Below, piece after piece: positions 8,421 through 50,769 of a stretch of 64,000 bases of DNA. Location of the stretch: assembly GCA_004764695.1 (NCBI GenBank), contig SMSO01000033.1:2557001-2621000 (forward strand), read 5' to 3'. This DNA is from Schizochytrium sp. TIO01. Taxonomy: Eukaryota; Sar; Bigyra; Thraustochytrida; Thraustochytriidae. The stretch's first letter is position 1. The number at the start of each line of letters is the position of its first letter. The notes beneath the pieces were generated by a model. That model was not told where the DNA came from, did no database searches, and was given only the letters and a program-made list of their open reading frames with translations. A program made the position numbers and the translations under genes.

Positions 8421-11001
8421 TTACGTGAACACCTCAAATACTCCTCTGGTGCGGGCGCAAGTCAAGTTGCTCGTGGTCCAGCCGGGCCAATTGACGACGT
8501 CAGCGTACTTTTCCTTTCTTGAAGAACCTCTAATACGTCTCCGGAGAGTGTTATAACTTCGCAGGGTATCCTGTTCAGAATGTTCATAGTGGCTGTTACG
8601 ACGGCTGCTACTCTGCCGCGAGCGATGCATTTCATCCAGCGGGTTTTCTCCATCGTGATGACTATTAGTTGTAGACCGCCCAATGGAGTTTGTATTAGCA
8701 TCATTTATCTCCTTTATATTGTCGAGAGATTTCGTACCCATGATTGAAGAATCACTGAAGTCACCTGCGCTTACCGAAGGCACGTTGCGGAGATGGTGAC
8801 GCATGTCGTAGCGCTGCTGGTCTACACGAAGTTTCATAACAAGTGCACGATTGGCCACAGATCGACGCTGGATCTCTCGCTCAATTTGAAGCTCCCGGGC
8901 AAGTTTCTTGGCCTCTGTACCATGGATTGTGTGATAAAGTCCAGCACGGGAGTCCATATTCTCAATGCGATGAGCCTCGAGGGAGTCTACATGCTCGGTA
9001 CTTTTGCCAGCCATGCTTCGGTCATGCAAGCTACGAAGCCGTTGTGATATAACCGAATCATCAAGTGCTAGACCATGTTTTGGTAAAGATGCTCTACGTG
9101 AGACATCGATGGCGTCATTGTCCTCTTGAGGCTCCTTTATATTCAAACGCACCTCATCTATAATCGCCGTGGCACTATTAACAGAGCTGTTTTCCAGGTC
9201 ATCCTTTGACCCCGAGCTTGAGCTCTCGACCTCTTTTGTGTCAAAGATATTATTAGGAAATGCAACGTGATGGGATGTCTTTTTTCCTACACTACCATCA
9301 CTTTGGGTACTGCGAGCGCTTGCACCAGATGTTCCGAAAACTCCGTCTAAAGATCGAGACGGTTTTGACCGAGAAATTTGGCTGGTGAGTTCCTCGGATA
9401 CAGCATCCGTTGCTTCGTTGCGCTCCTCGGCATCTTCCTCGTCTTCATCACTACTAGTTGCGTCCAAGTTTAGTGGCTTGAGCTCTTCGGTATTTGAATA
9501 TGGTTCAGCCTGGTTAGTATTCGTTGGAGTGCCCGAACCCTTGATATCGTCCGGGTTGATGCTAAACAGGTCAAAGAGCTTTGACGTAGATGAAGTTTGT
9601 GGCGCATTGACGGAGTCGCTTTCCTCAGAAAGCCTGCGCAAAGTGTCAACAGCCTTGTCATTTCCGGGCTCTTTAATTTCGTCAAGCTTGTTGCGGAACC
9701 TAAAGTTCTTCATGAGCGCGCGGTGACGGTCCATGGCCGACTTTTCAAGTTTCGCATCGCCTGCATAAGCGTCCTTGTCAAGCTCTGGGCTATCGTATTC
9801 ACCGGGTTCTGAGTCGAGACCCTCTTGTTTATGAATCCGGGCTTTAGATTTCAGAGCAGTAAAGTCACGTTCACGACAGGCATAAAAGACCTCTGGCACT
9901 TCCATGTACTGGATGGAACTCATATCATCATCGAAGGCCACAGTATAGTACACAGTTGGCAGATTGTTTACGGAGGGTTCAAACGGGAGTTCGAGTTGTG
10001 CAGCTGTTTCGTTTACAGCAACCAGAATCCATGTACTTGCACCAGCAATGGCCCCAGCAAGCACATATGAGGTAGGGAAGAAGGAGGCCATGATAATGGG
10101 GGTCAGAATCGCCCAGGTGTGAATCATCATACTAGTAAGCTGGACGAAAGGAAAGGGGAACGGGGTCTCTGAGATCCGGCGGGCGTTGTTAAAATACATG
10201 TTTGCGTTCGTCTGCACCTGAAAGGCACGACTCAAAATAGCGTCTCCAGCACGAAATGCTTCACGGTTTTCCATGATCAAGCGATGCATCCACGATGCGA
10301 CTTGGATGGGACGCTTGCGGTCACGAGCTAAAAGTTCTACCTCTTCCTGGTTTAGGTTGACACGGTGGTGCAGAGCAAAATCTATTCCCTGAAACTCCTC
10401 CAAAGCTAGTTCATGGTAGGCACGGCACCAGCGGATAATCGTTTCCCGGAGGACCTGGACATGCTCTGTGTCATCTAAGAGAAAGGAGTTTAAGAAGGAC
10501 ACAAAGTCATGCATCTTTGATGCCATGTTAAAGTATGCAAGTTGGGCTTCTGCATAGCGCGAGTATGCGATCTGTGCGCGGTACACGACGGTAAAACCTA
10601 CAATAAAACTAATACTCTGTGGTAGTTGGCACAAGAAGGCAAGAATCCAAAGTGCCACAGCAAGAGCCAAGTAAGCAAGCAGTAAAGCATCATTTAGACA
10701 CTTCGTCAGTTGATAGCCCTTTTCAATCGTCTTTCAGAAATGCAGAAATACATCAAGGCATTTATTCGGTTCTGTGAAAAAAAAAAATCTTCGTAAAAGA
10801 CAAACTTACCCCAAAATACGACGTACTCTGAAGCACGTGGAGCCCGAGCCAATCTCTAAGTGGCGTAAGGTATGCAAAAATCGTCGCAATAATGGCAGAT
10901 GCGGCAGCTATGGGCATGGATCTCCACGAAAAGAGCGCACTGCCCGCTTGGTGCAGGAAGATGTCATATCCTCCAAGTTTGCGAGAATCATAGACAATCA
11001 T
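8421..11001 (-). CDS. Bestrophin-family (UPF0187) anion channel with long disordered C-tail, two exons
   Basis: Predicted pentameric chloride or bicarbonate channel of the bestrophin/UPF0187 family. Exon 1 is 11001–10810 (64 codons from ATG), the intron is 10809–10701 (GTAAGT…AAG, 109 bp), and exon 2 is 10700–8421. The joined frame is 823 residues. Membrane segments lie near residues 29–45, 70–104, 257–275 and 277–295. Family motifs are YRAQIAYSRYAEAQ (about 104–117, equivalent to the FRxNxxYxRWWE block), PFPFPF (244–249) and NETAAQLELPF…NNLP (294–312). Residues from about 330 to the end are acidic, Ser-rich and disordered, far longer than in plant or bacterial relatives, and likely regulatory. 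Starting at 10670 would use a TTG codon and lose the first membrane helix; an in-frame TGA precedes the 11001 ATG. Plastid or thylakoid versus plasma or vacuolar membrane location cannot be told. Confidence 0.84.
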
Positions 11002-13683: not shown

Positions 13684-15243
13684 TTAAACGATGATGGAAG
13701 CCTCATTGAATAGCTTCGAACGTAATTTTGATAAGCTCCACGCGCGATGATTGGCAAGATGTTGTGGTCCTTGTGCTGCCAGGTCTCGAAGCATACGTGG
13801 GTTGCACAAGGTGCAGCAATTCGCTACACGTGTGGGATTCACTTTGCGGGATGGTGCCACTCGCTTGTATTCTTTGAAAATATTCATATAGTTCGCTTTT
13901 CCTGGTACAAAGCGAGAGACCATCTGGAGGTAATTTGTATCAAAGGCGTCTTCCGGTGGTAAAGTTCTCCATACATGATATTCGTCATACGCGGTTTGAT
14001 TGTTTGTCAGATACAGTAGGTAATCTGCCAGGTCTTTTGGTGAAGCGAAATCATGGACATTGATGAAAGAGCGCCGCGTGGTAATGTTGAAAACATCAGG
14101 AGCACCCATGTATATTGGAATCGGCCCAAAACTCAGCGTCTTCATCAACTTCTCTGTCACGTATCCATCCAGGATAGTATTCTCGAAGGCTAAGTAGAAC
14201 TTGTACTTGGCAGCTAAGTCCGCCATATTTTGCAATGGCTTTGGAGGCGTTTTTGCACCTTTTCCGCATGAACCATAGTGATCAATGGACCCTACTGACT
14301 TGGGTAAAATTTTCTCGAGTTCGCTGATGTATTCTCCGCGGCGGCTTGAAGTTGGTTCGCAGTTACTAATGACTGAGAGCGCAAACAAAGGGCGTCCAGA
14401 CTCGCTCACAAGCTTTGCAACCTGCTTATTTCGCTGTACATAGGTCACAGGCCTTACAAGGAAATTGGGATTCAGTAGTCTATTCCAAAAATGAATACCC
14501 ATCACAAAGTCCACGTTTGACTGAGCTTCCTGAGTCACGTGGCTGGCTTCACGTAAATAGATTACACGGTATCGACGCGTCGTCTGATCAGGCATGAAAC
14601 GAGGGATCTCATGATCCCAAAGCTTGAAGCGTGTTAGGCGTTCAGCGTCTGAGCGATCAACAACCACAATTCCTGCTTTACTAAGATCGCCACCCTCCTT
14701 GACCTGAAACATCTTGCACCCAGTGTCTTGCAAACATCCTGGACTCCCAGGTCCTGAGTTGACTGGACACCCGGAGAATCTTTGAAGAGCCGTAGCTGAC
14801 TCGCCGAGCATGCGCCCGTAAAAAGCAACCTGCATGTTAGCCCTTTCTGTTTTGGACCCATTATAATACTCCTCAAATTTAGTACCGCAGTTCGCTTCCT
14901 CGATGAGATTCTGTGGATTGCGGCAATCCTTTGCGCCGACAAATGAAGGCGAATTCTTATTCTTCGCTCCTGGCTCATCATAATCTTCTGGCTCCACCTC
15001 TTCAGATGGATCACCATGATCGTCTGCTTTAAAAGATGGGTTTAGACTTGCTCTCAAAGCTGCAGTCTCTACCCCGATGTTCTTGAGGCCGAAATCACAT
15101 TTTTGCTCCCAAAACAAATTTAATGAAATGAGGACTACTATTGTAATGCTCAGCAGTATGAAGGAATGCCTTTGTTGTGCCACACATCGGTACTGATCTC
15201 TTGGTTTATTTACGTCTGACCTTGGGCTTCCACACCCACGCAT
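13684..15243 (-). CDS. GT10-family fucosyltransferase (alpha-1,3/4 type), Golgi type II membrane protein
   Basis: Predicted Golgi enzyme that transfers fucose from GDP-fucose to glycans. It has 519 residues from ATG 15243; the open frame begins earlier only at TTG 15255. A short basic cytosolic tail is followed by one membrane anchor (about 27–44, SFILLSITIVVLISLNLF), then an acidic stem to about residue 105, then the catalytic domain. The C-terminal half has the GT10 signature: SNCEP…SRRGEYISELEKIL, IDHYGSCG, then FYLAFENTILDGYVTEKL (about 349–366), PIPIYMGAP (374–382) and RRSFINV. This is the nucleotide-sugar binding lobe. N-glycosylation sequons occur in the lumenal part. The acceptor sugar cannot be inferred. 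Single exon, with no near neighbour. Confidence 0.86.
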   Translation of the reverse strand: MRGCGSPRSDVNKPRDQYRCVAQQRHSFILLSITIVVLISLNLFWEQKCDFGLKNIGVETAALRASLNPSFKADDHGDPSEEVEPEDYDEPGAKNKNSPSFVGAKDCRNPQNLIEEANCGTKFEEYYNGSKTERANMQVAFYGRMLGESATALQRFSGCPVNSGPGSPGCLQDTGCKMFQVKEGGDLSKAGIVVVDRSDAERLTRFKLWDHEIPRFMPDQTTRRYRVIYLREASHVTQEAQSNVDFVMGIHFWNRLLNPNFLVRPVTYVQRNKQVAKLVSESGRPLFALSVISNCEPTSSRRGEYISELEKILPKSVGSIDHYGSCGKGAKTPPKPLQNMADLAAKYKFYLAFENTILDGYVTEKLMKTLSFGPIPIYMGAPDVFNITTRRSFINVHDFASPKDLADYLLYLTNNQTAYDEYHVWRTLPPEDAFDTNYLQMVSRFVPGKANYMNIFKEYKRVAPSRKVNPTRVANCCTLCNPRMLRDLAAQGPQHLANHRAWSLSKLRSKLFNEASIIV

Positions 15244-16750
15244 CTTCGTGCGCAAGTCTCTCTCTTCGCTGCTCGCTCAGAGTAGCAAAGTCCAGCTAAT
15301 TCGGGCTCGATCTTTTGATCGTTCGAAAAGGCAAGAACAGGTCTGCTCGTAGCTCCTTGTCCACAAACGACCCACTGCGTGTCCACTTGCGCTGCACCGA
15401 GGTTTCCTCGACTGCTTCGTCTTGCGTTGGCGCTCTGCAGACTCGCAGTTCAAGGTCAGCAGTGATAAACTTGTCTGACGTACTACGTGCCACTCTTGCC
15501 GGCACGTACTCTTTCTCTTTATCCCTCACACAATCGTTTTTACAACTTTACCAAAAACTTTTTAAACAATCAATCAAAGGCGAAGTAAAAGTTGGGGTCC
15601 TCGCTCCGTGAGGGGTGCACATAAGAAGACTTGCTTTTCAGCGCACGCTATGACAAAGGTGGGGTACTCGAAGGGCACCTGCAGTAGGACCCGCTACCGA
15701 GGTACTAGGCCTGGGGGGGCGTAATCGCGGAAGATGTGCACAGTGCCCCCCTCGAACGCACCCTGGCATTGGTTGGAGGTGTTGCTAAATTACTCAGAGC
15801 TGCAGTGACTCTCATTGTTCTGAGGTAATAATAATTCGCGAGAAAGAAGAAACCTTTTAGAAAGGATTGGTGAAGAGACAGCCTATCGATGTCCCTTTCT
15901 GCGCATCGCGTACTGCCCATGCACTTTGGGGAATGGCAACTCCAAGGTCTTGGTGTTTGCTGTGAGGGAGTCTGAGGTTGGTTGGGAAGGTCGACCCGGA
16001 TCTTCGTTTGGAGAGGGTTTCTGCACTCGCCGAAGGGCTTTGCATCGTCGCATAGGATATGGGGACATGACCCCTTGACACTGAACCCTTGACGCTGAAG
16101 CTGGGCAGTATATACTGCAGGGAGATTGATTCTTTTCTTGGTTTTAGAGCGTCTGTGAAAAGGTTTCCAGGACTAGGTAAGTGTGTACCTACCTCCCCGG
16201 AAAATGGAAATCATTTTTATAGAATAAAAAATATTTTCTAATTTGAGGGTCAGCATATGATAATAGTACTAATACAGAAAAGTACCGTTGAGTTTCTGCA
16301 ATTGAACCAACGATTGAACGAACAATTAAACAAAGATGTATAGGCCTGCGTACGTTTGTAAACAAGACAGAAAACTATGGATGTGGATGGATGGATAGGA
16401 GATGGTAAATGGTAGAATGCGATGAGAGACGGAGTTGAAAGAAGCCCGAAAAGTGACGACCTCGGGCAATATAAATAAGCTGTAGACCAAACTTTCTCTC
16501 AAGACAAAGAAAAAAAAATCGTCAACGATGAAGTAGCAAGTTAGAGTAAAAGAAAGAAGACCGGATGTTGCAGTAATAGCAAAGATTAGCAAAACCCTCA
16601 CTGATCGTGTGTGAAAACTAAGTCAAACGCACGACACTTAGAATACATTTCAACGCGTTGTGAGGCTTACCGAAGACTAGATTTCATCAACTGAAGCACA
16701 TCTTATAAGTTCAACTTCTTTACACAAGCTTCGAGACTATTGTCGAGGAC
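15244..16750. other. Intergenic, promoter of fucosyltransferase plus AT-rich spacer
   Basis: Nothing supported. A C/G-rich patch lies at about 15590–15760 (including GGGGGG at 15712). The 16200–16620 part is AT-rich with ATGGATGG-type repeats at 16377–16395. Confidence 0.4.
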
Positions 16751-18247: not shown

Positions 18248-21200
18248 CTACTCTAGCTCAAATTCAGCCCCAACAATATCTGGAGTTAGCAACGGCTCGA
18301 GTTTAGCTCTCAGAACGCTTGGAAGACTTCTGCCTTGTATATTTTCGCTCCAGTACATACGCAGACGCTCCGCACGAACCACTCGCCACGCCTCATGCAC
18401 TTGCTCTGGAGAGTCAGGATAATATAAGTCGACACTACGTCTTCTGCTGCATTTTCTTATATGAGTGTAGCAAGCTTGCTTGTTCTTGGAGCTGTATTCA
18501 AGACACCAAGCACAAAACCGATGCCCGCAGCTACCATTGCCACAGATCACAGCAGAGCATCCCTCAAATTCGTCAAAGCGAGCCTTACAATTTGGACAGC
18601 TCGTAATCAAGAGTTTTTCTTTCATGTGCTGCAAATGCATCTTTGCTTCTAAGCTCAGCCCGCCTTCTTCAAGAATCACTGCCATGCGCTTTTCAATCTC
18701 CTCTTCGACCCGAACTAAAGCATCGCTTTCCGCTTTCATCTGCGCGATCCGCAAAAGGTGTCTCAGAGCCCTTGGCGCAAGGCGCGCAATATCTTGGCCC
18801 ATGATTCTTCCATCGCATTTATCCTCCACGCATTTCATCGTTCCATCGGCACCCACAGTCACAGAGGCTTCTGGGTCCGTAGCAGCTTCTACTGAGCTTG
18901 CGATACAGTCTCGGCAAAGGAAATGTTCTCTCTCGCAGCACGTGCCCTCGGAAAGCGGGATGTCATCCAAGCATACAGGACACCTTACTAAAGGGTCTGC
19001 GGCAACCCCGAATGCCTCAAGCGCTTCAACGGCACTTGGACGATGCTCAGGATTTATCGCTTTGAGAGAGTTTATGAGCGACTGTATTGCAGATGTTCGC
19101 TCACGGGGATATAGCTTCTCTAGGACTACACCCACAGAGTACATATCCATTGCAGTTTCGAACCTGTCTACGGGCCCAGTCTGCAATTCAGGAGCAAGGT
19201 ACTGTGCCGTCGCCTGAAGAGATGTGTATGTTGCTGTGGAATCCGCTACTTTCATACCATCGAAATCCCCAAGCAGTGGGGTCTCGATACTCGTGAGGAA
19301 GATGTTCTCTGGCTTGATGTCGCAGTGTACGATGTTCAGAGCATGCATGTCAGCCACCCCAATGAGTAAGCCTGAGGCAAGTCGATTCCGCGTAGCATTG
19401 TCTGCGTTGGGGTGTTTTTTAATCCATTCTGCCAAGTTGCCTTGCTCGTAGAAGGGCATCACGATGCATCCGCGTGGTACTCCATGTACTTTACTAACAA
19501 AGACACCGATAATGCGGATTATATGTCGCGAAGCGACCTTGCCTAGATTCGCAGCTTGCATGTAGAAAGCCCTAATTTGACTCGGATGCCCGAGTTGAAA
19601 CTGCTTTAGAACGAGAGTTTTGCCAGCGCTATCTAGCACCTTCTGTACCGTCTTGCCACTCCTCGTAACCAGAAGCTCTCCAACAGGCTGGAAATCCGAA
19701 ATTTCTATGTTTGCTAGCCAGAGATCAGAGCAAGCCACCTCAAGGACACCATCTGCACTTACATGTACCTTTTCGAGCCATGCTTGGTCTTTCAGTAGTT
19801 CTGGGTAATGCTCCTGCGCGTGTTGCAGAGTTTCGGCAAGTTTATGACGAAATGTTTTGCTCAGCTCGATAGGGGTACCTTCAGAGAGAATAAGCTCTTG
19901 TTTTTTTATTCGACGCTCGAAGTACGCTTTATCTTCTTCCTCCAGGTTCTTCCCCTCGAGGTCTCTTTTGGCTCTCTTGATAATTTCCGTCGCATCTCGC
20001 GACCTGGCAAGTTTCTCGTATAGCTCTATAACACAAGAGACATTGGTTTCTTTCGAACTCAAAAGCACATAGTCGTATAACTCCGCAATGTCCTCCGGTG
20101 AAAGAATGATAGGTTCATCTACCTTGAAGTCTTGGGTTGACTTCTCCAAACCATCAAATACTGAGCTGATAGCGCATAGTACCTCTGTCACTGTGCCACG
20201 AAACGTATCCCCTTTCAGGTCCTCAAGCTCTTCCTGCAGAGCATTTTGAAGTTCAGAAAGCTCAGGCTTCAGTTTTGTGGACTTTTCAGGCTCCCTCATA
20301 GCAACCCTGAATGCGTCACCAAGTCCCAACTCACTCACTCGCAAAATGACTTTTTCCACCGCTTCTTCGCTTCGTTGATTAACGTTACTCTGATAACTAC
20401 TTTGGCTCGCCTTGTACTCTTTGACGCACTTGTCAGCCCGACCAAGCAACTCCTGGCAGTCTTTGAAGTCAGCCGCGCATGCACGTCCATCCAATGCTGC
20501 GCCACTTATGCTCAGACCCTGCAACAAACTGGCAAGCCTTTCCTTAAAGCCACGAACTTGAACCTCATTGCTTTCGTAGAACCCAGTCCGAACCCAAGGG
20601 TGCACATTTTGCACGAGTGAACGCAAGCGCGCTCTTTCATCGTTTCGCTCCGCAATGAGCTGAGATAAACCAGCCGGAGAGCTTTCACGAATCCGGGCTT
20701 GGCAAGATTCTAAACGGTCTTTGGAGTTCGTGATGTCACTAGAAGTCTGTTTCAACTTCAATTGAACAAAGTGGCCTTGAATGACTGGGCCTGCGAACTC
20801 CTCAAACAGTGCAATCGCGGTCTGCAGGGAGTCTTCTCTAGCCACACCACGGCCTGCCCGCGTGTGCGAGACCTCCTTGGCGAGCTGCACCACGTCAGCA
20901 AAGCTCACCCCACCCATGTCCGGTGGTTCTCTGAGGTATGGTTGGCGAAACGCAGTAACAGCAGATGCTCAAGTCAGGATTCCATTCGATAGATGCTTCA
21001 ACACAGCTCGTGCACCAGACATTTATTTCAATCACGACGGAGAGACTCAATGCCCCTACCATCAAAGAATCAAACTTACATAGCATCTTCTGAGCCCCTG
21101 GCCTCTGCACAAGGTTCGTTCGCCTCATCAATGCAGACACAGGAATCAGGGTCCGGGGCTGCAATATCCTCTCCAGGAGTACACACCTTTGCAAACAATT

Positions 21201-24200
21201 CTTCGGGGGTTATGAAGTCTCCAAACTCACACCTGTGTCAAGTCAATCGAATGTTCAATACGAGGTCTCGTGAGAACAACAATTCGTGAATTTCAAGACA
21301 GCCTTGCAGCTCCAGGACCGACATTGATGACACAGCCTAGGCAAACCTGACAGCTAGCTGCGAGCGACGACGGAACTTACCAGGTTTTCACAGAAGGGCA
21401 TGTTTTGTGCAGAGATTTAGCAATTGCCTTGGCGCCGTCGATGCCGATGTGATTGTGTTGGAGACTGTGTGGTCACCAATAAGCGATTGTAATGTCGCGA
21501 CATGTCAGTTCAGTGCGTTTGATTCTCGACGATATTGAGCCACAGCCATATACTGCACCACTCTCCTTTCCTTGTGTTCGATCTTGGGATTTGGCAAAAG
21601 GCCGCTTCGGTTGTTGCTCTTTACCATCGGTTCACCCATTTATTCCCTGCATTCCTTATGTCCGTAATCATTCAGGGCTCTTTCATTGACTGTTTTCTTT
21701 CTCGCTCTCTATTTCCTTTTTTATTTTTTTCCTCTCTCTCTCTCCAGTTTCGAATCTCAGCGCGCAGCTCTCTTTTTGCCCTCTTTCTGCTCTACAAACG
21801 TACGACAATCGAGTGAGGTTTTTGCATCCCTTCAGTGCTTTGGCGACTGCCTTTGCGCCCTCATCGCCAATGTTGTTCTGTGAAAGACTGTGTACGAGTA
21901 TTTTTCATTCGTTGTGCAATACAATTATTACGCGTCAGTCACTTGAGTGTTTCCAATACTCCAAACAAGCGCTCCCCCGCCACCACAGGAACCCAAACAG
22001 CGTTCTCAACGTCATGTTCTTTCTGTCTGTGCTGTATTTCCGTAATTCTTCTCTCCTCATTCAATGAAACGTTGCGCATTCTATTCACATGATAACTCAT
22101 CACCGTTGCTATCTTTTGCTCTGTTCCCGAAAGCGCTTCTTCAAGTTCTATCGCCCAATCTTGAACTTCATGTCCTCAATTCTCTGTCTTTGCAAGGTGA
22201 CTTTCCCGTTTTATCACCTTCACAACTCAGCGCAGCGCAAGTTTTCGATTCTACGAACGTACTACAATTCTGTCAGCTTCTCGCACCCCTCAAGAGCGTT
22301 GGCGACTGCCTTTGCGCCCTCAGAGCCAATGTTGTTCTCTGAAAGACTGTGTACGAGTATTTTCCATTCGTTGTGCAATACAATTATTACGCGTCAGTCA
22401 ATCAGTTAATCAGTCAGTGAGATCGTGAACTGCTTTCATGTCTGCGTCTCAAGTTCTTCTGCGAAGCAATACTTCTGCAACTTCACAACACTGATTCTCT
22501 ACATTCGCATTCTCTGCTCTGTCTGTTTTTGCATCATTCGTCCTCAGCATTCAAAATCCTACTCATCGCTTTTGACAGTTCTTTTTGAGTTTGTTTTCAC
22601 ATCGTTTCTTCTGTTCTTTCTTTCTTTCCAAACAAAGGAACTCTTCTGCAACACATATGATTTTCTCTCTTTGGTCTCTCTTCTTTCGTTCCGAGTCGAC
22701 CATTTCTCTTCTTTTTCTATTTCTTTTTCCTTTTCGCATCTCAAAGGCTGAAATGAAATACGAAACAGCAGACTTTTCCAAACGTACCCCAATGTAGCGA
22801 GGTCTTTGCATCCCTTCAGTGCTTTGGCGACTGCCTTTGCGCCCTCAGAGCCAATGTTGTTCTGTGAAAGACTGTGTACGAGTATTTTCCATTCGTTGTG
22901 CAATACAATCAATCTTACTCAGTCAATCGCTGTCCATCTGAATGCCTTCTTTCTTCTCGTGTCTTCAGAGAACTAAGAATGTCTCTCTCAGCGCCATTCT
23001 TCGTTGTCTCTGCAATATTCATCCGCACTTTCAAATTCACCACTTTCGTGGGAGTGTGATTTCTCAATTTATTTCTTTCCCCAAATAATCGTATTTTGCT
23101 TATTCTTCCTTGCAACTTTAATCTTTGAAAGAGTGTTCTTGAAAGATCATACGTGTTTGCTCTTTCTTTTGTGCGTCTCTTTTCTTACGTTCTCCCATTC
23201 TCTCTTTCCGAACCAAAACGCATCGATAGTATGATGGTACCATAACTACTGCGCAGTGGAGATTCAACACGCTCATAAAACATACCTCAATGTGGTGAGA
23301 TTATCACGACCTTTCAGTGCGTTTGCGACGGCCTTTATGCCCTCTTCGCCAACGTTGTTCCCCCAAAGCCTGTCATTGGTTGTTAGAAGAGAGTATTTTC
23401 AAAGTTAGTAAAAAGCTGCATTACTTCTCAAGTGTTCTTTTAACATCACAACTCCAATTGCAGAACTCTCTCTCTTTCTCTCTTTTCGCTGTGAGGAATC
23501 GTCGTTCTGAAGAGCCTTCCTTCTCTCGATGAGTACCAACATGTAAGCAATAAGTATATTGCTTCTGTACACTTTATTGTTGTTCTGTAAACTTTTACTC
23601 CGATTACACCTTCCTTTTTTTTATATTATTATTATTTTTTCATGCTTTTCAATTTAAAAATAAAACAAACAATTGGTACTGTTCTTTTCCGCTTTGAAAC
23701 AAGGCCCCATCACTACTAACTGCCAAGGTGGGTGGGTAATCTTTCAAACAGCTATTGTATAAACTTATATATCAATCAAACGTACCTCAAGTCAGTGAGA
23801 CTCTTGCATCCCTCCAGAGAGATTGCGATGGCCTTTGCGCCCTCTGTGCCGATTTTGTTGTTAAAGAGGCTGGTTTGTGCAACACAACAAATACGAGTCA
23901 GTCAGTCAACTGCTTTCATGTCTGCTTTCATCAAGTTCTTCTGCGAAGCAATACTCCTACAACTTCACAACACTGATTCTCTACATTTGCGTTCTCTGCT
24001 CTGTCTGTTTTCCTTCAGCATTCAAGTTCTATTCAATGTTTTTTACTTCTTCTTGAGTTTGATTCGTATCATTTGTTCGGTTCATTCTTTCATTCTTTCC
24101 AAAGGAAGGAACTCTTCTGCAACAAATACTTTCTCTCTTTGTGGCCCCTCTTATTTCTTTCCGAGTCGATCATTTAAAAAAAATTTTAGCATTCCAAAGG

Positions 24201-24498
24201 CTGAAATGAAGCACCGAATAGAGACTTTTCAAAACTTACTTCAATCTAGTGAGGTTCTTGCATCCCTTGAGTGCATCTGCGAGGGCCTGAGCCTGCACAG
24301 CGCATATGCTCTCGCAAGCCAGCCTATGTTTGTTGGAGATCAAGGTATGCGATTCTCAGTTCATTAGTTCTAAATCTTAGCTTTAAAATAAATTGCTCAA
24401 AGGCCATGCCTCGATCTTCTACCCCTCTCTCCAGCATGCACTTACCAGACCTCCGTCGTACCATTGGTGATTTCCCCAATACTCCGTGCAGTCGTCAT
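18248..24498 (-). CDS. LRR–protein kinase–RING/RING2 fusion protein, ten exons
   Basis: Exons on the minus strand: 24498–24446, 24323–24240, 23869–23786, 23369–23286, 22871–22788, 22346–22263, 21887–21804, 21464–21381, 21232–21080, 20930–18248. All introns are GT…AG, and the total is 3477 nt, exactly 1158 codons plus TAG. Residues 18–214 are seven ribonuclease-inhibitor-type LRRs (consensus LSxNNIGxEGAKAVAKAL), one per exon. Residues 270–650 are mostly helical. The kinase domain is about 680–905: Lys in TLVLKQF (707), HCDIKPEN (800–807), GDFDG where DFG is expected (820), APE (844), and no clear Gly-rich loop. RING1 is 915–970. A cysteine-free helical linker follows, then a RING2-like zinc domain at 1043–1092. 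The likely role is a sensor or scaffold coupling ligand recognition to phosphorylation and ubiquitin transfer; this is inference. An in-frame TGA lies just upstream of the 24498 ATG. Confidence 0.8.
21381..24323 (-). repeat. Tandem array of seven 84-bp LRR exons with duplicated flanking introns
   Basis: Seven exons of exactly 84 bp sit at spacings of about 420–525 bp. Each starts with the third base of a codon and ends after the second base of a codon, so any unit can be gained or lost without a frameshift. Copies at 21804, 22263 and 22788 share about 100 nearly identical bases, including intron sequence beyond the acceptor (GTACGAGTATTTT, ATTCGTTGTGCAATACAA). The introns at 22347–22787 and 23870–24239 also match in several blocks. 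The 24240 copy is the most diverged, losing the NNIG motif. Confidence 0.85.
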
Positions 24499-27577: not shown

Positions 27578-28564
27578 TTGCACGCGAACTATGCGAGATT
27601 AGGCCTAATTATTCATGATCTACGTAGTTTCTTTGCTTCTCTCTATTTCGGTTGGGAGTTCTGCTTTCTGATTTTCATGGTGCGAGAGATTGTTTTGGCT
27701 TGAGTTTTAACCCGAGCTAAACAATTTCAACTTATTACCTTTGACTAGTGAGAGTACGACCTTGGTATATTCTCAAAAACAGTCCTTTTTGATGATACAC
27801 TCGGTGCCTGTGATCTTAAATGAGTTGTTCAAACATAAATCATGCTCAGATGCCACTTTTATTATTATTTTAAAAATAAACCCCAAACTCTGGACTGTGA
27901 TTTTAAGAAAATGTGAGATATGACGTGGTGTTGTAAGCTATCAGAAGGTCTCGTTTATTTAGATCTCGTTGGTCTTCTAATGGAGCTGTCGAATGATGAA
28001 TTGAGCTCTTTGCAGGAAAGTTTTCAAGAAATACTAATTGAAATTACCCAAACATAATTGCAGGTGAGTTGTATGCGACAAATGAATGAAAACATAGTTT
28101 GTGGAGTTGCAATGCCGCCAACACAGGAAGTTGAAAGTATATATTACATTTTAGAAATGGCCATTGTATGTATGAAGGGTGCTGTGCAACAGTATTGGGT
28201 GAGGGGGGGGGGGTTAGTTTTTAATGACCAAGATCTTTGAAGATTTATCGGAGAAAGGGCCACAAGTAAATTAATCAAAGAAAAGTATTGCGAACCGGTT
28301 CCTTATATTACAGTCGATTCAGTTGTCATAATAATTACTGAGATTTGTGTTGATTTGAAGGATTCGTGCGAATTGTGTACTAATTGTGGGCGACCTACAA
28401 GTTATTTCCTATACTTCCTTCACAGTCGTACTAATCTCTACTAGTAGATAAGTACTATCTCTAGAGTAGCAAGCACAACACAAAACAAGAAAAAAGAACG
28501 AGACCTTTCTTTGTTGATTACAATCTTGCAATCAAGGTCTCGATGCAACAGCTGTGAGAACGCA
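27578..28564. other. Intergenic, upstream of RAB3GAP1-like gene
   Basis: AT-rich spacer between two divergent loci. It carries a G9 run at 28204–28212. No supported ORF or RNA gene. Confidence 0.5.
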
Positions 28565-31500
28565 ATGTCAGAAATGGAGGCACCCGAGTGGGCAGATTAT
28601 TCTAACGCAAGCGCGGCTGAGACCTTTGTGGCAGCCTTGGAGATGCTCTTGGCGCAGTGGGGTCTTTCGGATGCGCTCCAAGCTCGGCCGGCTTCTCCAG
28701 CAAACTCTAAACTGCGATTTCGAGCAGATTCTGAAGCAAACGGTGACCACTCGGAGCGAATAATACACCAAAACAAGAACTCCACGACTGAGGATCTCAA
28801 CTTCAGAAAAGATAACATCTCAGGTGAGCTAAATCGTCATGGGTATGCTGAAGTTGAGGGCGAAGACGAAGATGATGACGATCTTGTAGAATATAGATCA
28901 GAAGAATTACCCCTGGGAAAAGATAGATATTCAGTGCTCTATATTCCACATCCCGATGGAGCTTTTGCTCGTGTTCCTGTGAGCCCTGTAGAGGCTCGCC
29001 TCTCCCTCGCAGAAGTCATGCTCCTTACAACGTCGCCAGAATTTCGTCCTTTGGAGCAGCCTTCTACTCTAGAACAACTCTTTGGTGTCGCAGAGTACGT
29101 GGTCTTGAGTCCAACACAACGCCGTGCAAACCTGAATGATGTATCGTTGTTGCTATCCAGTGCATCATTGGCATTACCGACTTGCGCAAGACCCGTGCCG
29201 TGTTTTGTGCCAGTTCCGAGAGGATCAACGGGTGATATCTCTTCACCTGTCAGTTCTCACGAAGGAAGCCGAAATGCACTTAAACGTCGCCTTCAAGGAG
29301 TAGTATATAAGTTATTACCACAGTTGCAGAAATCCACTATATCTTACTACGGAACATGGACAGCAAGTTCTGAAAGCAATCCTGGCACTGTGATTCATTT
29401 CAACTCGGTTGAGCAACGCCTTGGTGATGTTCCCAAGACACTTAGATCACTATCTGGGATCTGTAGGCTTTTTCGCGGGAAATTGGGCCAGCACTCTCTC
29501 GGCAGTAGTCATCATGGCCAGAAACAAAACGCTGGATTTAATAATCGGTCAAATAATGAACATTCGGACAAGCGTCTCTCGTCAGGAGATGTACTAGTGA
29601 GCATTCGTTATACATACGAAGGGCGCCGCCATTGGAACCCTCATTTTCTCACTAATCCATCTGCTGATGCGCACACAAGAGCAACCAATTGGACAGAATG
29701 GCATGATAGTGATCTGAGTTGGCGGCTCCATCTTGATCATTTTGGCAAGCCTCCAGCAATAATTGCCCTGCGCGGTGGTTTTGGCCGCCCTCCATTGTGG
29801 GGACCACTTTCAGATCCTATTGCAAATGTTGGCTTGCAGATTCTTTGGCCTGCGTTTTCTGATGATCAAGTAGTAGATAATGAGACAATCTGTACACTTA
29901 TACCCGAAAGTGCGCCGACCTGGGTGGTTGAAGCCTGTATAGATGCTGAGCTACAAGACTCAGAAGTTGACTATGGAAATGAGTCATTAGCCCCTGAAGA
30001 TGTCTACTACGGCCACAATAGGGAAGCTGATCATGATTGTGAGGAGAACTCATCTGCTTCTTCCAGCAGCGAAGATAAGAGCGTTGTAGAAAATGAAGCT
30101 ACTTGTCCTCTTTCTAGCTCCGTAAGATACTTGCAAATAATGGTAGACGCATCAATGTCAGATCATTATCGGAACGCCTTGCTTTCACGACTGCCACAGG
30201 ATGAGGAAGATGTTGAAAGGGAGTATCATCAGCAACATAACAGGGGATACCAAACACGAATGAACAATCAAAGTTTTGACCAACAACCTGGAGGACCAAC
30301 GCAGGCACCGGCTCGAGCAGGACGCGGTGCGCGCAATACCTCGCTTGAGGAAGCACGCATTCAAGGCCTCATTAAGGACCTTTTTACTTCTTCTCCAGAC
30401 GCAGAGTTGCCTCGAACCGTATTAGTTCAACTTCAGCGATTAAAACAACTGTACATGGAAGGTTCACTAACAAACCATGAATTTAGAGATGCAAAGGAGC
30501 GCATCCTTATTGAAGCTGGACGTGCTGGCCCTGATCTAGATTATGGTATGTCTTCACAGTGGGCAGATGAATCATCCGCACAATTTAACGTTTTGCAACG
30601 CCCATGTCCAGAGTGCTGGTTGTGCTCACCAGAAAGTTGCTTAAAAACGCACCGTGTTCCAGCAACGCGCGCGGCGACCAGCGTAAAAGGTGCCCCAGAG
30701 GGATCCCTACTGTCTGTTCTTGCCTTGCGCATTATTCCTGAATTTGGTGCCAGCATGAGCGCTGCGTCCGCTTTATGGCGAGCGTTTGTGGCAGAGCTAA
30801 GATGGTATTGGGAAAATGCTGTTCTTATTCCTGTCAACGCCAGTAGTCGGAATCCGCTGGAGCCTGTGGACCATCAGGATTGTATTTTACACCAAAAATT
30901 AGCGCTCTTGAACCTCTGTATTGCTGCTCGCGCTCATGCTCAATTTAATCACGAGTCTAGGTTAGATGAAGTAGCAAGTTTAAGTAACACGGGTATAGCG
31001 AAAGCAAAAGGGGTCGAACTCAGCGGATCCGTGTCTGGTAATAGAAATGATGATTGCAAAGGCATAGCAGAGGACAAAAACGTTTACGAGGGCCTAGAGG
31101 AAGAGGGTTCAGACACCTTCTTTGACGCTGCCTCATCTAGTCCTATATCCCCATCACACACGGCACAAACGGTTGGAGGTTTGAGTGTTCCTTGGACAAT
31201 CGAAAACAGTCTCATGACCGAGGATATGGTTCGTGAGCGCACAGAACTTATGAGCTCACTTGCTTTGAAGCAAAATACTGCAGCTTTGCACAAAGAGATG
31301 CTTTCGACGTCTTTGCGTTCAGAAATTTCTGCGTTCAAGGCAGCTAATGTGGAAGCAACTTTTGAGGATTTTAAGCGTTTTAAAGGGCGCACACGCATGC
31401 TTGGGGACTTTTGGAGAAAGTTGTGGGATGAGACCGAGGCAATGACCTTGCGCGACCAAGTTCGGCAGAACCCCACTTTGTTTGTTCATGCGGCCGAAGC

Positions 31501-32155
31501 AGAGAAAATTCTTCACTTCTTTGAGACCATGTCGCCAAATGCTGCTTTAAGTGACTTATTTCTTGTCGGTCTGCAATCTGCCATTTATGTCTTGAAAAAT
31601 GCAATTGATTCATTCATGAATTATCCAGAGATTCACTCAATCTTATCCCGCAATCTGATGATGGCATCCTCGCAGCTTGGCCGCCTTGATGCAGTACAAA
31701 GTCCAAAACCTGGGTCGCCTTCTCGCCGAGGCCGAGCGCTTGAGCAAGAACTAAAGTTACAAAGGCTTGTTCGTCAGGCAGCTCTTGACGGTTTAGCACG
31801 TACTGAGTTGCTTTTGAGCCTTGCTGCGTCGCTTTTGCATAAGTTTCCTCCGTCTGTTGTGGAGAGTATGTTGACAGAAGAAGAAGCGACTGGTCGTCTT
31901 GTTGCAACTTTGGAGAAGTCTGCCATTGCAGAGCGTCAGCACATTCGATCGCTCTTATTTCCCGAGTCGGTCATGGACTCACTTTCTGTTCCAGAGCCTG
32001 ATCGCCGCGAGTATATTCTCCGAGCGCTAGCACGTCGTGGTGGTTTTCGCGGTGCATCTTCATGGGTACGCCCCGGGGCAAACCGTATGTATGTAGCTAT
32101 GACTCATAATTCTTTTGTGTTGGCAACTTCTCTCACTGAGACAGCCTTTGCGTAA
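28565..32155 (+). CDS. RAB3GAP1: Rab3 GTPase-activating protein catalytic subunit-like (RAB3GAP1)
   Basis: In animals RAB3GAP1 pairs with RAB3GAP2 as GAP for Rab3 and exchange factor for Rab18, acting in vesicle traffic and autophagy. This protein is 1196 residues from ATG 28565 (the upstream frame opens only at TTG 28511), close to but longer than the roughly 980-residue human protein. Recognisable blocks are FGRPPLWGPLSDPIANVGL near residue 420, RPCPECWLCSPESCLKTHRVP near 678, ILHQKLALLNLCI, then EISAFKAANVEATFEDFKRF near 917 and HAAEAEKILHFFETM near 975. The last two mirror the human EMESFKAANPGCSLEDF and EAEKVLHYL motifs in the catalytic C-terminal region. Acidic and Ser-rich inserts account for the extra length. 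Single exon, convergent with GCNA, 244 bp between the stops. No RAB3GAP2 is in this window. Confidence 0.82.
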   Translation: MSEMEAPEWADYSNASAAETFVAALEMLLAQWGLSDALQARPASPANSKLRFRADSEANGDHSERIIHQNKNSTTEDLNFRKDNISGELNRHGYAEVEGEDEDDDDLVEYRSEELPLGKDRYSVLYIPHPDGAFARVPVSPVEARLSLAEVMLLTTSPEFRPLEQPSTLEQLFGVAEYVVLSPTQRRANLNDVSLLLSSASLALPTCARPVPCFVPVPRGSTGDISSPVSSHEGSRNALKRRLQGVVYKLLPQLQKSTISYYGTWTASSESNPGTVIHFNSVEQRLGDVPKTLRSLSGICRLFRGKLGQHSLGSSHHGQKQNAGFNNRSNNEHSDKRLSSGDVLVSIRYTYEGRRHWNPHFLTNPSADAHTRATNWTEWHDSDLSWRLHLDHFGKPPAIIALRGGFGRPPLWGPLSDPIANVGLQILWPAFSDDQVVDNETICTLIPESAPTWVVEACIDAELQDSEVDYGNESLAPEDVYYGHNREADHDCEENSSASSSSEDKSVVENEATCPLSSSVRYLQIMVDASMSDHYRNALLSRLPQDEEDVEREYHQQHNRGYQTRMNNQSFDQQPGGPTQAPARAGRGARNTSLEEARIQGLIKDLFTSSPDAELPRTVLVQLQRLKQLYMEGSLTNHEFRDAKERILIEAGRAGPDLDYGMSSQWADESSAQFNVLQRPCPECWLCSPESCLKTHRVPATRAATSVKGAPEGSLLSVLALRIIPEFGASMSAASALWRAFVAELRWYWENAVLIPVNASSRNPLEPVDHQDCILHQKLALLNLCIAARAHAQFNHESRLDEVASLSNTGIAKAKGVELSGSVSGNRNDDCKGIAEDKNVYEGLEEEGSDTFFDAASSSPISPSHTAQTVGGLSVPWTIENSLMTEDMVRERTELMSSLALKQNTAALHKEMLSTSLRSEISAFKAANVEATFEDFKRFKGRTRMLGDFWRKLWDETEAMTLRDQVRQNPTLFVHAAEAEKILHFFETMSPNAALSDLFLVGLQSAIYVLKNAIDSFMNYPEIHSILSRNLMMASSQLGRLDAVQSPKPGSPSRRGRALEQELKLQRLVRQAALDGLARTELLLSLAASLLHKFPPSVVESMLTEEEATGRLVATLEKSAIAERQHIRSLLFPESVMDSLSVPEPDRREYILRALARRGGFRGASSWVRPGANRMYVAMTHNSFVLATSLTETAFA

Positions 32156-32399: not shown

Positions 32400-35300
32400 T
32401 TACTGTGCAGCTTTGAATTCTTTCCAGCGCTCAGCAAGAATACCCATGACTTTGCTTTTATCATTAACCTCATCAAGGACGGTTTTATAGTTGTCTTTTA
32501 CAAACTGTTGGTACGCGTTAAGCTTCTTCTTTTCGATCTTGTTGCCATTCTCATCAAACTGACCAACAAAAACAAGGCTGCTCCTGCTCTTACACCGGCT
32601 GCAGCACATGCTGTTGACATCAATAGATTTGCTGTGTCGAGTCCATGTTGCTTTGCAGCCAGTGCATTCATAACGAAAGGGTGCGTGGACTTTGTAGTTA
32701 TGGCATGTCGTAACGGGGTAGCGTGGATACACTTGAGTTGCACGCTCGGCCCACTTTACAAACGCTGGGCCGTGTGGAGGTTTCTGTACACCATCAACCA
32801 ACCATGCAGCAGCATGACAAAGTTCGTGTAAAAGTGTCGTGTTGAGGCGCTCTCCATTCGTTATAACCTTGCTCGAAAGTTCGATACGCGCAGAGCGGGT
32901 ACGATCTGATGAGCATTTCATGAAACAAAACCCAGCAGACGATGTCATGCGTGCATTCCACGTGATTTTAAGGTCATATGGGATTTCGCCCCCAAATACT
33001 GTATCGTTGAACTCGGCTAAGAGATCACGAGCAAGCTTTTCCCTGTTCGATTTTGTCACTTTAATGGAGTCCTTGACAGAGGTCCCATTCTGACGCTCCT
33101 TTGAGGTCTTCGAGGCCTTGATTTTGGCAATAGATTTTTCAGCATCGCTCATGTCGCTGAAATCATCGTCGTGGTCGTTCTCACAAAACTCGACACCACT
33201 ACTGCTTTTTGATGATGATGCAACTGACAAAATTTCAACGTCGCTATCGGCATCGGCATCCTCGTCATCCTCATCTTCGTCATCCTCATCTTCGTCGCTG
33301 CTACCTTCGTCGACATAATCCTCATCCTCGTCCTCTTCCTCTGAAAGGTCCTCGTCAGAAGCAATGAAAGAGTCTTCAAGATCATACTCATTTTCACTTT
33401 CTTCGTCTTCATCATCCTCATCAGAGCTTTCAACACGACGAGAAGATCTGATATTTCGTTTTGGCGCCTTACCTTTAGGCATTAGGGGTGTTGATGTTTG
33501 AATACTAAAATTGGACTTTGAAAGTTCGTTCTCATCATTCTCATCATCATCGTCTTCTTCAAAATAGTCGTCATCTTCATCTTCATCAGAAGAAGATAAG
33601 AAGACAACCTTCTGAGGACCTTTACGGGTCGACTTACGAGGAGGAGGTAATGGACTATTTTCATCAAACTCCTCATCAAACTCCTTTGCTGCGGTCGCTT
33701 TATAGGATTTGGGTGGCGGAGTTGATTCGACACGGGGAAGAGGGGTTGATTCGCTCATTGCTAAAGGGGAAGACGATAGATCATAAACAAGCTCCTTTGC
33801 TGCTGTAGCTTTGTAGGATTTGGGTGGCGGGGTGTATTCGCAGGGGGGCAGAGGTGTTGATTCACCAATTGACAAAGGGCTAGTGGGTGGAGTCAAGCGG
33901 AGCGGTGTAGAGGCGGGGACCCTTGTGTGTTCTTTTCCTAGAAAGTCATTGCTTTCAAGTTGCTCGTCCTCATCTTCTTCGTTATTTGTGTGTAAAACAC
34001 GACTCGCGTTTTGGCTCATTTCACGGGATGCCCCGGCAGCGGCCACAGCAGTATTTCTCCTTGGTCGTCGACGAAGTTGTGTTGCGCTTCTTACAGGTGC
34101 AAAAAGAGGACTTTCTTCCTCTTCCTTTTTGTTGCCTGCTTGAATTCTTGTACTAGTAGCTTTCTTCTTTGGAGATGGCGTGTAAATACTATCCTCGTCA
34201 GATTCTCCATCATTCGCGTAGTCCCCATCATCTTGGTCACTTTGCTCATCTTCAAAATCACCATCCGCGTCATCTTGATCAAGATCTATACTACGCGCAC
34301 TACTTGTTGGGGGCAAGACTGCTGTACGTTCTGTGAAGGTTTCATCATTGTCAGAGCTGCTACTGTCGCTAATTGTCGTTGTACCTTTAAGCCCCGCTCC
34401 AGCGCTTTTACTATCCTGTAAATCATCTTCTACATCAGATTCATCGGTTTCACTCAAAGTGCACAAACCCTTTTGTGTTGGGGGCGGTGCCCTTTGTGGC
34501 GGTGTTTGGTTCTCTCCTTGACCTTTAAGGGGAAGGGCAGAGCCTCCTGCACTATTGGTTGCTTTGCTGAAAATGGGTTTCGCTGGACTTGGTGACAGTT
34601 CTCTGTCTTGGATGGAGCTTGCCGTAGACTTGGTTGGGCTCGGTGACATTCCTCTGTCTTGAATGAAGCTTGTAGTAGACTTGGCTGGGCTCGGTGACAA
34701 TTCTCTGCCTTGGATGGAGCTTGCCGTAGACTTGGCTGGGCTCGGTGACATTCCTCCGTCTTGAATGGGGCTTGCCGTAAACTTGGCTGGGCTTGGTGAC
34801 ATTCCCCTATCTTGAGCCAGACTTGGTGCGGCCTTAGGTATGGTTGAAGAGGAGATACGACGTGTTGGTGTTGAATTATCGTTCAAATTGACACAGTTAT
34901 TGAATTTATCGACGAGGTTTTGCTCAAGGAAGCCAGAATCCCGCTCGAAATCGCCTTGTAAGACATCAACGTCTTCCTCTGAAGACAAGGACTGCCGCGC
35001 TGAGACGAATGAGTCTGTATGAATTGGCGAAGAGTCTCCAGCATTGCGTTCATTGAATTGCTGGAAAGGACTTGCACCGAACTGTCTCAAGGCAGCTGGA
35101 GAATCTGCTGAGAAATCTAAGTTTAATCCGTTTCGCAGTGCTTCACACAGATTATCGGTCAAACTGTGATTTGTGTTCTCTTGTTCAATCTTAACTTTTT
35201 TGTCCGATGCTGGCATATCACTTGCCGGCAGGGTAGACGGGTTTCCAATTTTCGGCGACCTTTCTGCAGAATCATCATAGTCCCTAGCAAACGAGCCGTT

Positions 35301-50521: not shown

Positions 50522-50524
50522 TAA

Positions 50525-50737
50525 ATACATACATACATACATACATACATACATACATACATACATACATACATACATACATACATACATACATACATAC
50601 ATACATACATACATACATACATACATACATACATACATACATACATACATACATACATACATACATACATACATACATACATACATACATACATACATAC
50701 ATACATACATACATACATACATACATACATACATACA

Positions 50738-50766
<29 letters not shown>
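50525..50766. repeat. (ATAC)n / (CATA)n microsatellite, about 60 copies
   Basis: 242 bp of uninterrupted tetranucleotide repeat. Overlapping frames of repeated Met-Tyr-Val-Cys on the minus strand are artefacts of the repeat. Confidence 0.97.

Positions 50767-50769
<3 letters not shown>

What the first reader, a model, noticed from the sequence alone, without database searches (positions are those of the whole stretch)
18248..24498. LRR–kinase–RING/RING2 fusion: a one-polypeptide recognition, phosphorylation and ubiquitin-transfer protein
Seen: ten exons with canonical splice sites join into one frame of exactly 1158 codons, combining seven LRRs, a kinase domain and two zinc modules. Known: LRRs recognise ligands, kinases relay signals and RING/RING2 modules transfer ubiquitin. 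LRR-kinases and RING ligases are normally separate proteins. Inference: this may be an intracellular receptor-like or immune-type protein in which recognition is coupled directly to ubiquitination. I know of no characterised protein with this order.
Basis: partly seen in the sequence, partly recalled or inferred. Interest (0 to 1): 0.82.

Follow-up and report, generated by a model that had tools for sequence, protein, structure and literature searches.

The report
Hypervariable LRR-kinase-ubiquitin ligase receptor family
A single-celled marine eukaryote, probably a thraustochytrid, has a large family of predicted intracellular receptor-like proteins in which a cassette-built, fast-changing recognition surface is fused to a kinase and a ubiquitin-ligase-like end, in the style of the candidate immune receptors of brown algae but with a different output end.

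Summary
The ten exons (minus strand, 18248-24498) splice into exactly 1158 codons: a short first exon, seven 84-nt LRR exons, a linker exon and one large exon with an unknown region, a kinase domain, a RING-like module and a RING2/Rcat-like module, with no IBR between them. Paralogues keep the same phases and junctions. The gene is one of at least 51 matches in its own genome, 22 of them near full length without stops. The more interesting feature lies in the LRR exons: interchangeable phase-2 cassettes in tandem arrays. Codons facing the LRR concave surface are almost saturated with differences at all three codon positions, while most other exon codons and the introns are nearly identical, even between most unit pairs whose introns differ by 1-2%. 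The kinase-RING exon is under purifying selection. In the same genome, two examined arrays of the same cassette design lie upstream of ROCO GTPase frames, the arrangement reported from brown algae. Best reading: an intracellular recognition family of the brown-algal exon-shuffling kind with a new kinase-plus-E3-like output. Immunity, ligand, kinase activity and ligase activity are inferred. There is no transcript, structural or biochemical evidence.

The parts
24446..24498 (-). exon 1: 17 codons from ATG plus 2 nt, ends in phase 2 (MTTARSIGEITNGTTEV)
   Evidence: ATG, frame and donor seen in 7 aligned main-subfamily loci, in L011 and in the window
24240..24323 (-). LRR exon 1 (84 nt, degenerate N-terminal repeat)
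   Evidence: same acceptor context for the first repeat of L011
23786..23869 (-). LRR exon 2 (84 nt)
23286..23369 (-). LRR exon 3 (84 nt)
22788..22871 (-). LRR exon 4 (84 nt)
22263..22346 (-). LRR exon 5 (84 nt)
21804..21887 (-). LRR exon 6 (84 nt)
21381..21464 (-). LRR exon 7, terminal repeat (SLHKTCPSV type), donor GTAAGT
   Evidence: GTAAGT at 20 of 20 terminal LRR exons
21080..21232 (-). linker exon (153 nt, phase 2 at both ends, TPEELFAKVCTPGEDI motif)
   Evidence: in phase with GTAAGT donor in 18 of 20 loci, among them the 53%-identical paralogue L028
18248..20930 (-). large terminal exon: unknown region, kinase, RING-like and RING2/Rcat-like modules, stop TAG
19694..20930 (-). N-terminal part of the large exon, about 410 aa, no Pfam family above cut-off
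   Evidence: conserved among paralogues
19109..19657 (-). protein kinase domain (Pfam match): beta-3 Lys, HCD, DFD
18815..18982 (-). RING-like module, C-x2-C-x11-C-x3-[H/D]-x2-C-x2-C-x24-C-x4-C
18449..18598 (-). RING2/Rcat-like module, C-x2-C-x9-C-x4-C-x4-C-x4-C-x2-C; candidate catalytic Cys codon at 18557-18559
   Evidence: ungapped alignment to the Ariadne-1 homolog entry 1wd2

Best explanation
The gene encodes one 1158-residue, probably intracellular, receptor-like protein of an expanded family. Shown from sequence: each LRR is one 84-nt phase-2 exon; these cassettes form tandem arrays of variable length; array introns and framework codons are homogenised within and between loci; codons facing the concave LRR surface are hyperdiverse; the kinase-RING exon is conserved under purifying selection. 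Inferred: the solenoid binds variable ligands (microbial, viral or non-self); binding changes the state of the atypical kinase; the RING-like module recruits a charged E2 and the RING2-like module passes ubiquitin through its cysteine to a target or to the receptor. The diversity is most simply explained by unequal exchange and conversion of whole cassettes combined with selection for new contact residues.
For: Gene model and conservation of junctions. Family: at least 51 matches, 22 of 51 near full length without stops. Hypervariability: 48 non-identical units, per-base diversity at codon 2 .71/.65/.63, codon 3 .66/.59/.66, codon 28 .73/.53 (two bases), flanking introns .043 and .059. Pairs whose introns differ by 1-2% (n=59) already differ at 0.565 of codon 2-3 sites and 0.024 of framework sites. 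The five codons with the most residue or end-codon types (2, 3, 5, 26, 28) are all exposed x positions of the LxxLxLxxNx strand (position assignment recalled). Exchange between loci: median nearest-unit intron divergence 0.020-0.070 in 7 gene pairs whose large-exon dS is 0.115-0.247. Constraint on the output end: dN/dS 0.25-0.35 overall, kinase 0.12-0.24, in 9 pairs. Rcat-like spacing: ungapped match to the RING2 of the Ariadne-1 homolog (1wd2) with seven cysteines aligned, among them the one I recall as catalytic. Same cassette design upstream of ROCO GTPase frames in the same genome.
Against: No transcript, protein or ligand data. RING and RING2 are below Pfam cut-offs. PDB profile hits for the second module are weak: RNF4 0.0011-0.0074 for single-domain entries and 3.8e-7 for a two-copy construct, Ariadne-1 homolog 0.0062 (another ARIH1 entry 0.08), parkin 0.019-0.063, also unrelated zinc modules such as UBE3A 0.014. 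For the first module the top hit is a nitrile hydratase at 0.039 and the best RING (TRIM34) comes at 0.065. No IBR. The kinase lacks the Arg of HRD (HCD), has DFD for DFG and Gln at the apparent alpha-C Glu position, so it may be weak or a pseudokinase. Codon 8, not a strand position, is also diverse (.53/.51/.62, mostly Ser or Asp). Some copies are damaged (e.g. C7 and C30:8381813). Diversity is clearest in the main subfamily; in the window's own subfamily the framework is more variable. The two closest unit pairs (introns 0 and 1 difference) differ at 0 and 1 of six codon 2-3 bases. No structure could be predicted.
Confidence: 0.6

Rival explanations
1. Allorecognition rather than immunity: the family marks self and non-self between strains or cells, as fungal HET/NLR proteins with diversified, homogenised repeats do.
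For: Same evolutionary signature of conserved repeats, few hypervariable positions and exchange between family members reported for fungal NLRs (PMC4986451, passages). The sequence data here do not separate the two roles.
Against: I recall no fusion or incompatibility system described in thraustochytrids (not searched); the kinase-E3-like output differs from the HET effectors I know of.
Confidence: 0.2
2. Two separate genes: an LRR gene and a downstream kinase-RING gene that lie next to each other.
For: Large terminal exon and LRR exons differ in style; an in-frame ATG exists early in the large exon of the window gene.
Against: That ATG is present in 3 of 20 loci (window, L009, L011), with another at the exon start in L026; an in-phase acceptor at the same place in 20 of 20; a linker exon in phase with a GTAAGT donor in 18 of 20 (not found by that script in L018 and L020, where one search shows open motif-bearing segments).
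Confidence: 0.04
3. Combinatorial splicing (compatible with the best explanation): the interchangeable phase-2 cassettes are included or skipped, so one gene yields many LRR surfaces.
For: A phase-2 84-nt cassette can be skipped without changing frame. Internal LRR exons mostly carry the donor GTACGT (124 of 147), while the terminal LRR exon has GTAAGT in 20 of 20. Brown-algal ROCO cassettes are alternatively spliced (PMC11378527, abstract, passages and section 11).
Against: No RNA data. The donor difference may only reflect the ancestry of the cassette; the ROCO-type cassettes here have GTAAGT in 27 of 28.
Confidence: 0.3
4. Degenerating, functionless tandem repeats kept alike by recombination only.
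For: Several copies carry stops, and some units carry length changes that break the frame.
Against: 22 of 51 matches are near full length and open; purifying selection on the large exon; variation concentrated in surface codons.
Confidence: 0.04

Closest known systems
Brown-algal LRR-ROCO genes (Teng et al. 2024, PMC11378527: abstract, passages, section 11; Zambounis et al. 2012, not held, known from citations and recall)
   Same: One LRR per exon, phase-2 introns, cassette shuffling, diversifying selection on concave-face positions, candidate immune role; brown algae are stramenopiles, as this genome probably is (inferred). In this genome ROCO frames behind such cassettes also exist.
   Different: Exons are 72 nt (84 nt here) and the output end is a ROC-COR GTPase, not a kinase with RING and RING2-like modules. 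The whole words 'ring' and 'ubiquitin' do not occur in the main text of PMC11378527.
Tetrahymena 90-bp LRR exon genes (PMC6564038, passages)
   Same: Exact-length LRR exons, phase-2 bias, ectopic recombination; some fused with protein kinase domains.
   Different: 90-bp exons; no kinase plus ubiquitin-ligase end in the passages I saw.
Fungal NLRs with high internal repeat conservation (PMC4986451, passages)
   Same: Near-identical repeats with a few positions under positive selection, exchange among family members.
   Different: WD, ANK or TPR repeats and a NOD; the abstract says no LRR motifs were found.
RBR (RING-IBR-RING2) ubiquitin ligases such as ARIH1 and parkin
   Same: RING1-like and Rcat-like cysteine patterns, candidate catalytic cysteine.
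   Different: No IBR; about 70 residues without zinc-ligand pattern in between; fused to LRR and kinase.
Plant LRR receptor kinases with non-RD (HCD) kinases (recalled; the paper looked for is not held)
   Same: LRR plus kinase with HCD motif.
   Different: Plant proteins are membrane receptors with extracellular LRRs; here no secretion signal or membrane segment is evident (by eye) and a ligase-like end is attached.

Membership tests
Exon-shuffled hypervariable LRR receptors (brown-algal ROCO type, as a kind) | One LRR per exon of constant length, all introns phase 2 | tested here: met
   167 exons in 21 loci, 166 with donor exactly at 84 nt; phases
Exon-shuffled hypervariable LRR receptors (brown-algal ROCO type, as a kind) | Diversification concentrated at concave-face residues | tested here: met
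   codon 8 is a diverse position outside that face
Exon-shuffled hypervariable LRR receptors (brown-algal ROCO type, as a kind) | Exchange of cassettes between loci | tested here: met
   median intron divergence of nearest units below large-exon dS in 7 of 7 gene pairs examined
LRR-ROCO GTPase family | ROC-COR tandem after the LRRs | tested here: not met
   no Roc or COR hit in the window's large exon; present in L029 and L030
RBR ubiquitin ligases | RING1 | tested here: inconclusive
   Cys/His pattern present, Pfam and PDB hits sub-threshold; the His ligand is Asp in many copies
RBR ubiquitin ligases | IBR between RING1 and RING2 | tested here: not met
   no cysteine between the modules in 16 aligned copies, apart from an extra Cys directly beside a border Cys in some
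RBR ubiquitin ligases | RING2/Rcat pattern with a Cys at the catalytic place | tested here: met
   same spacing and ungapped alignment to the Ariadne-1 homolog RING2 (E=0.0062); Cys invariant in 13 copies; catalytic role of that Cys recalled
RBR ubiquitin ligases | thioester transfer of ubiquitin | not testable with these tools
   needs biochemistry
Active protein kinases | beta-3 Lys, catalytic Asp, Asn, metal Asp | tested here: met
   K441, D536, N541, D554 invariant in 10 aligned copies (numbering; roles recalled)
Active protein kinases | Gly-rich loop, alpha-C Glu, HRD Arg, DFG Gly | tested here: not met
   HCD and DFD invariant in 10 aligned copies, Gln nearly invariant at the apparent alpha-C Glu position, loop degenerate by eye (role assignment recalled)
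Immune receptors | alters resistance to a pathogen | not testable with these tools
   none

The most novel reading that the evidence does not exclude
A dedicated diversification process acts on the concave-face codons of the LRR cassettes (targeted mutation or very short-patch conversion confined to a few codons, possibly with combinatorial splicing on top), so that a unicellular stramenopile renews a receptor repertoire in a way comparable in effect to lamprey variable lymphocyte receptors. For: saturation at all three codon positions next to nearly invariant bases and at only 1-2% intron divergence; near independence of intron and hypervariable distance (r=0.075, 977 pairs); extra bases, often G/T-rich and several times in frame, inserted exactly at the hypervariable site in some units. 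Against: an identical pair of chromosome-end units (L016/L017) and a pair with 1 intron difference keep their codon 2-3 bases unchanged or nearly so, and L010 units with 5 of 300 intron differences share all hypervariable codons, so change is not clock-like.
Probability: 0.07. Interest if true: 0.95.

Novelty: new variant of a known kind. Interest (0 to 1): 0.7.

Why it matters
If right, cassette-built hypervariable LRR receptors are not peculiar to multicellular brown algae within the stramenopiles: a unicellular relative has them in hundreds of exon units, with at least two output ends (ROCO GTPase and kinase plus E3-like module). The kinase-plus-ligase end puts into one chain three steps that animals and plants usually split over several proteins (receptor, kinase, ligase), and it would make the question whether protists hold expandable recognition repertoires directly testable in organisms that can be grown in culture.

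Tried and rejected
DGR-like mutagenesis (A-to-N at AAC codons) was considered for the hypervariable codons and rejected by eye: third positions are T, C, G and A and many codons (GAG, GGG, TGG, CAG, TCT) do not fit an AAC template. The idea of a separate kinase gene was tested and largely rejected. A prokaryotic or viral origin: the scan of genome contigs returned the best 80 of 437 confirmed matches, the listed rows lying within query residues 427-688, that is kinase and the start of the RING part, at 26-47% identity; viral contigs gave 2 matches, residues 531-634 only. Neither shows the family outside this genome; neither collection holds eukaryotes as such.

Literature: thraustochytrid-specific searches listed 1, 1, 4 and 1 papers, with unrelated titles, not opened. 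One search (any two of three terms) showed 12 of 332 papers, none of the 12 with the word labyrinthulomycetes. Searches for RBR with kinase and LRR or other domain combinations listed 4 and 1 papers, not opened. One search (A. limacinum genome) listed 3 papers, not opened. The library holds only open-licence PMC papers, so this is weak evidence of absence. Zambounis et al. 2012 is not held; a paper on non-RD kinases is not held.

Limits of the counts: one search scores only the best 50 candidates, so family size is a lower bound. Loci are cut pieces of up to 10 kb, so array lengths are minima. Main-subfamily units were chosen by flank and repeat type (49 units from 12 loci, 48 non-identical; terminal, first and divergent LRRs left out). 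One search used 57 units of 11 loci; 510 of its 1596 pairs lie outside the printed bins (intron divergence 0.20 or more) and were not used; pairs are not independent. The contig-end test dropped 10 of 51 matches (9 further fragments near other matches, 1 on contig C24 whose length I did not have), and its 130-kb limit was set after seeing positions: 12 of 41 against 3.5 expected. dN/dS for the window/L009 RING part was undefined. Mutual-information tests (55 distinct exons): codon 2 with codon 3 p=0.0008, their third bases p=0.077, codon 3 with codon 5 p=0.029, codons 2-3 with codon 8 p=0.017, codon 2 with codon 26 p=0.37; so neighbouring codons are not fully independent. An earlier form of the Met scan gave a wrong value for the damaged copy L011; one search corrects it.
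Full report
The finding and its check. The window lies in an unnamed eukaryotic genome of 64.06 Mb in 37 contigs. The gene is on the minus strand. Its large exon is an open frame of 906 codons from 20968 to 18251, with a protein kinase domain (Pfam E=1.2e-25). The N-terminal part gives Pfam LRR_6 at E=8.6e-35.

Is the exon structure real? In the window gene and 20 fetched loci I found 167 LRR exons by protein pattern and the acceptor AG alone; 166 of 167 have GT exactly 84 nt later, against 873 of 15017 for any AG in the same DNA. The first exon with its ATG and phase-2 donor is visible in seven aligned loci, in L011 and in the window. An in-phase acceptor of the large exon lies exactly 22 nt before a conserved motif in 20 of 20 loci that hold the motif (L027 is truncated there; 16 of the 20 have a further in-phase AG nearby). 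A linker exon in phase at both ends, ending in GTAAGT, was found by script in 18 of 20; in L018 and L020 only an open segment with the motif is seen. It is also open in L028, 53% identical over the large exon. A Met just before the motif exists only in the window gene, L009 and L011, with another at the exon start in L026; in the other 16 loci the first Met is 27 to 211 residues inside. So the LRR exons and the kinase exon most likely form one mRNA. No transcript was available.

A family, not an oddity. The large exon has 51 matches in its own genome, a lower bound; 22 of the 51, the window gene included, cover at least 885 of 906 residues without a stop. Of these 22, 19 are 56-60% identical to the window copy, one is 53% and one 95%. 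Twelve of 41 placed matches lie within 130 kb of a contig end, where 3.5 are expected (limit chosen after the fact).

The recognition end. Each LRR is one 84-nt cassette with phase-2 borders, repeated in tandem: at least 18 in L027 and at least 14 in L009, the closest relative of the window gene, which itself has 7. In 48 non-identical units of the main subfamily, diversity per base is 0.71, 0.65 and 0.63 at the three positions of codon 2 and 0.66, 0.59 and 0.66 at codon 3, high also at codon 26 (0.49, 0.54, 0.37) and at the two bases of codon 28 (0.73, 0.53), but 0 to 0.08 at most other positions (exceptions at third bases of codons 4, 9 and 24, at codons 13 and 25, and at codon 27 up to 0.47) and 0.043 and 0.059 in the flanking introns. 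Codon 8 switches mainly between Ser and Asp and is not a strand position. The other hypervariable codons are the exposed positions of the LRR beta strand (assignment from general knowledge of LRRs). Among 59 pairs of units whose introns differ by 1-2%, codons 2-3 differ at 0.565 of sites and the framework at 0.024; in one pair with 2 differences in 299 intron bases, five of six codon 2-3 bases differ. Distance at hypervariable codons hardly follows intron distance (r=0.075, 977 pairs). Against clock-like hypermutation, the two closest pairs (0 and 1 intron difference) differ at 0 and 1 codon 2-3 bases, and two L010 units with 5 of 300 intron differences keep the same hypervariable codons. The window's own subfamily shows peaks at codons 2, 3, 8, 26 and 28 too, on a more variable framework.

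Cassettes move between loci. For seven gene pairs the median intron divergence of the nearest units is 0.020-0.070, while synonymous divergence of their large exons is 0.115-0.247. The arrays are therefore more alike than the genes that carry them, as expected from exchange or conversion of cassettes; some constraint on the introns is not excluded. The large exon evolves under constraint: dN/dS 0.25-0.35, kinase part 0.12-0.24, in nine pairs.

The output end. The kinase keeps the beta-3 Lys, the catalytic Asp, the Asn and the metal-binding Asp in all ten aligned copies, but has HCD for HRD, DFD for DFG and Gln at the apparent alpha-C Glu position. It may be an active non-RD kinase or a pseudokinase. 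The first zinc module has the cysteine pattern of a RING with C-x4-C at its end, and His or Asp at one place; library hits are weak, and the top PDB profile hit is not a RING. The second has C-x2-C-x9-C-x4-C-x4-C-x4-C-x2-C, which aligns without gaps to the RING2 of the Ariadne-1 homolog, with seven cysteines matched, at E=0.0062; RNF4 RINGs score somewhat better with a gapped alignment. Between them lie about 70 residues without cysteine (some copies have an extra Cys directly beside a border Cys), so there is no IBR. I file this as RBR-like in mechanism, not as a member of the RBR family.

A second receptor family in the same genome. A 35-base cassette pattern with up to 2 mismatches has 723 matches in the genome and none for the reversed control. 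A kinase-family cassette core has 115 and a second type 507 matches, controls none. In two of the six small regions with the second type that I fetched (L029 and L030), cassettes lie upstream of an open frame with Roc (E=1.8e-19 and 1.1e-17) and COR-A domains; L031, L114, L115 and L116 showed cassettes but no long downstream frame in the piece fetched. These cassettes are also 84 nt, phase 2, and most diverse at codons 2, 3, 5, 8 and 28 in 28 units.

Comparison with the known. Brown-algal ROCO genes have 72-bp phase-2 LRR exons, shuffling, positive selection on concave-face sites and alternative splicing (PMC11378527: abstract, passages, section 11). Tetrahymena has arrays of 90-bp phase-2 LRR exons (PMC6564038, passages). 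Fungal NLRs show conserved repeats with a few positively selected positions (PMC4986451, passages). The present family is the same kind of device with a different output end, so I call it a new variant of a known kind.

How it most likely works. Shown: architecture, cassette arrays, hypervariable surface, constrained output end. Inferred: ligand binding by the solenoid, a change of state in the kinase, and transfer of ubiquitin through the RING2-like cysteine. Immunity and allorecognition fit the sequence equally well; I prefer immunity because of the analogy with brown algae, without direct evidence. Internal LRR exons mostly have the donor GTACGT (124 of 147) while terminal ones have GTAAGT (20 of 20), which would suit optional exons but may be ancestry.

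Verdict. Interest 0.7.

Noticed in passing
L029:1-1311 (-) and L030:3-2171 (-): LRR cassette arrays of the same 84-nt design lie upstream of ROCO GTPase frames (Roc and COR-A); the cassette type has 507 pattern matches in the genome.
   Followed up: partly
L016 -2249 and -1361, L017 -1819 and -939, L015 -1338, L023 -2306, L013 -4326 (relative to the large-exon ORF start): Units with extra bases exactly at the hypervariable codon 2-3 site, often G/T homopolymers, several of them adding 12 or 15 nt in frame (lengths counted by hand); run lengths differ between L016 and L017 (may be assembly error).
   Followed up: partly
21 loci, window gene included: Donor sites of internal LRR exons (mostly GTACGT) differ systematically from those of terminal LRR exons (GTAAGT).
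   Followed up: partly
window 50458-50919: Long tandem microsatellite that keeps open frames on both strands (YIHT and YVCM repeats); the region from about 44 to 64 kb is mostly AT-rich and shows no open frame of 250 aa or more.
   Followed up: no
window 8424-10733 (-), 13687-15276 (-), 28448-32152 (+), 32403-36005 (-), 36806-38923 (-): Neighbouring frames: bestrophin-like, family 10 glycosyltransferase, Rab3GAP catalytic subunit-like, SprT-like, and a protein with WRKY19-type zinc fingers.
   Followed up: no
window 19694-20930 (-): About 410 conserved residues between linker and kinase with no Pfam family above cut-off; possibly a new domain.
   Followed up: no
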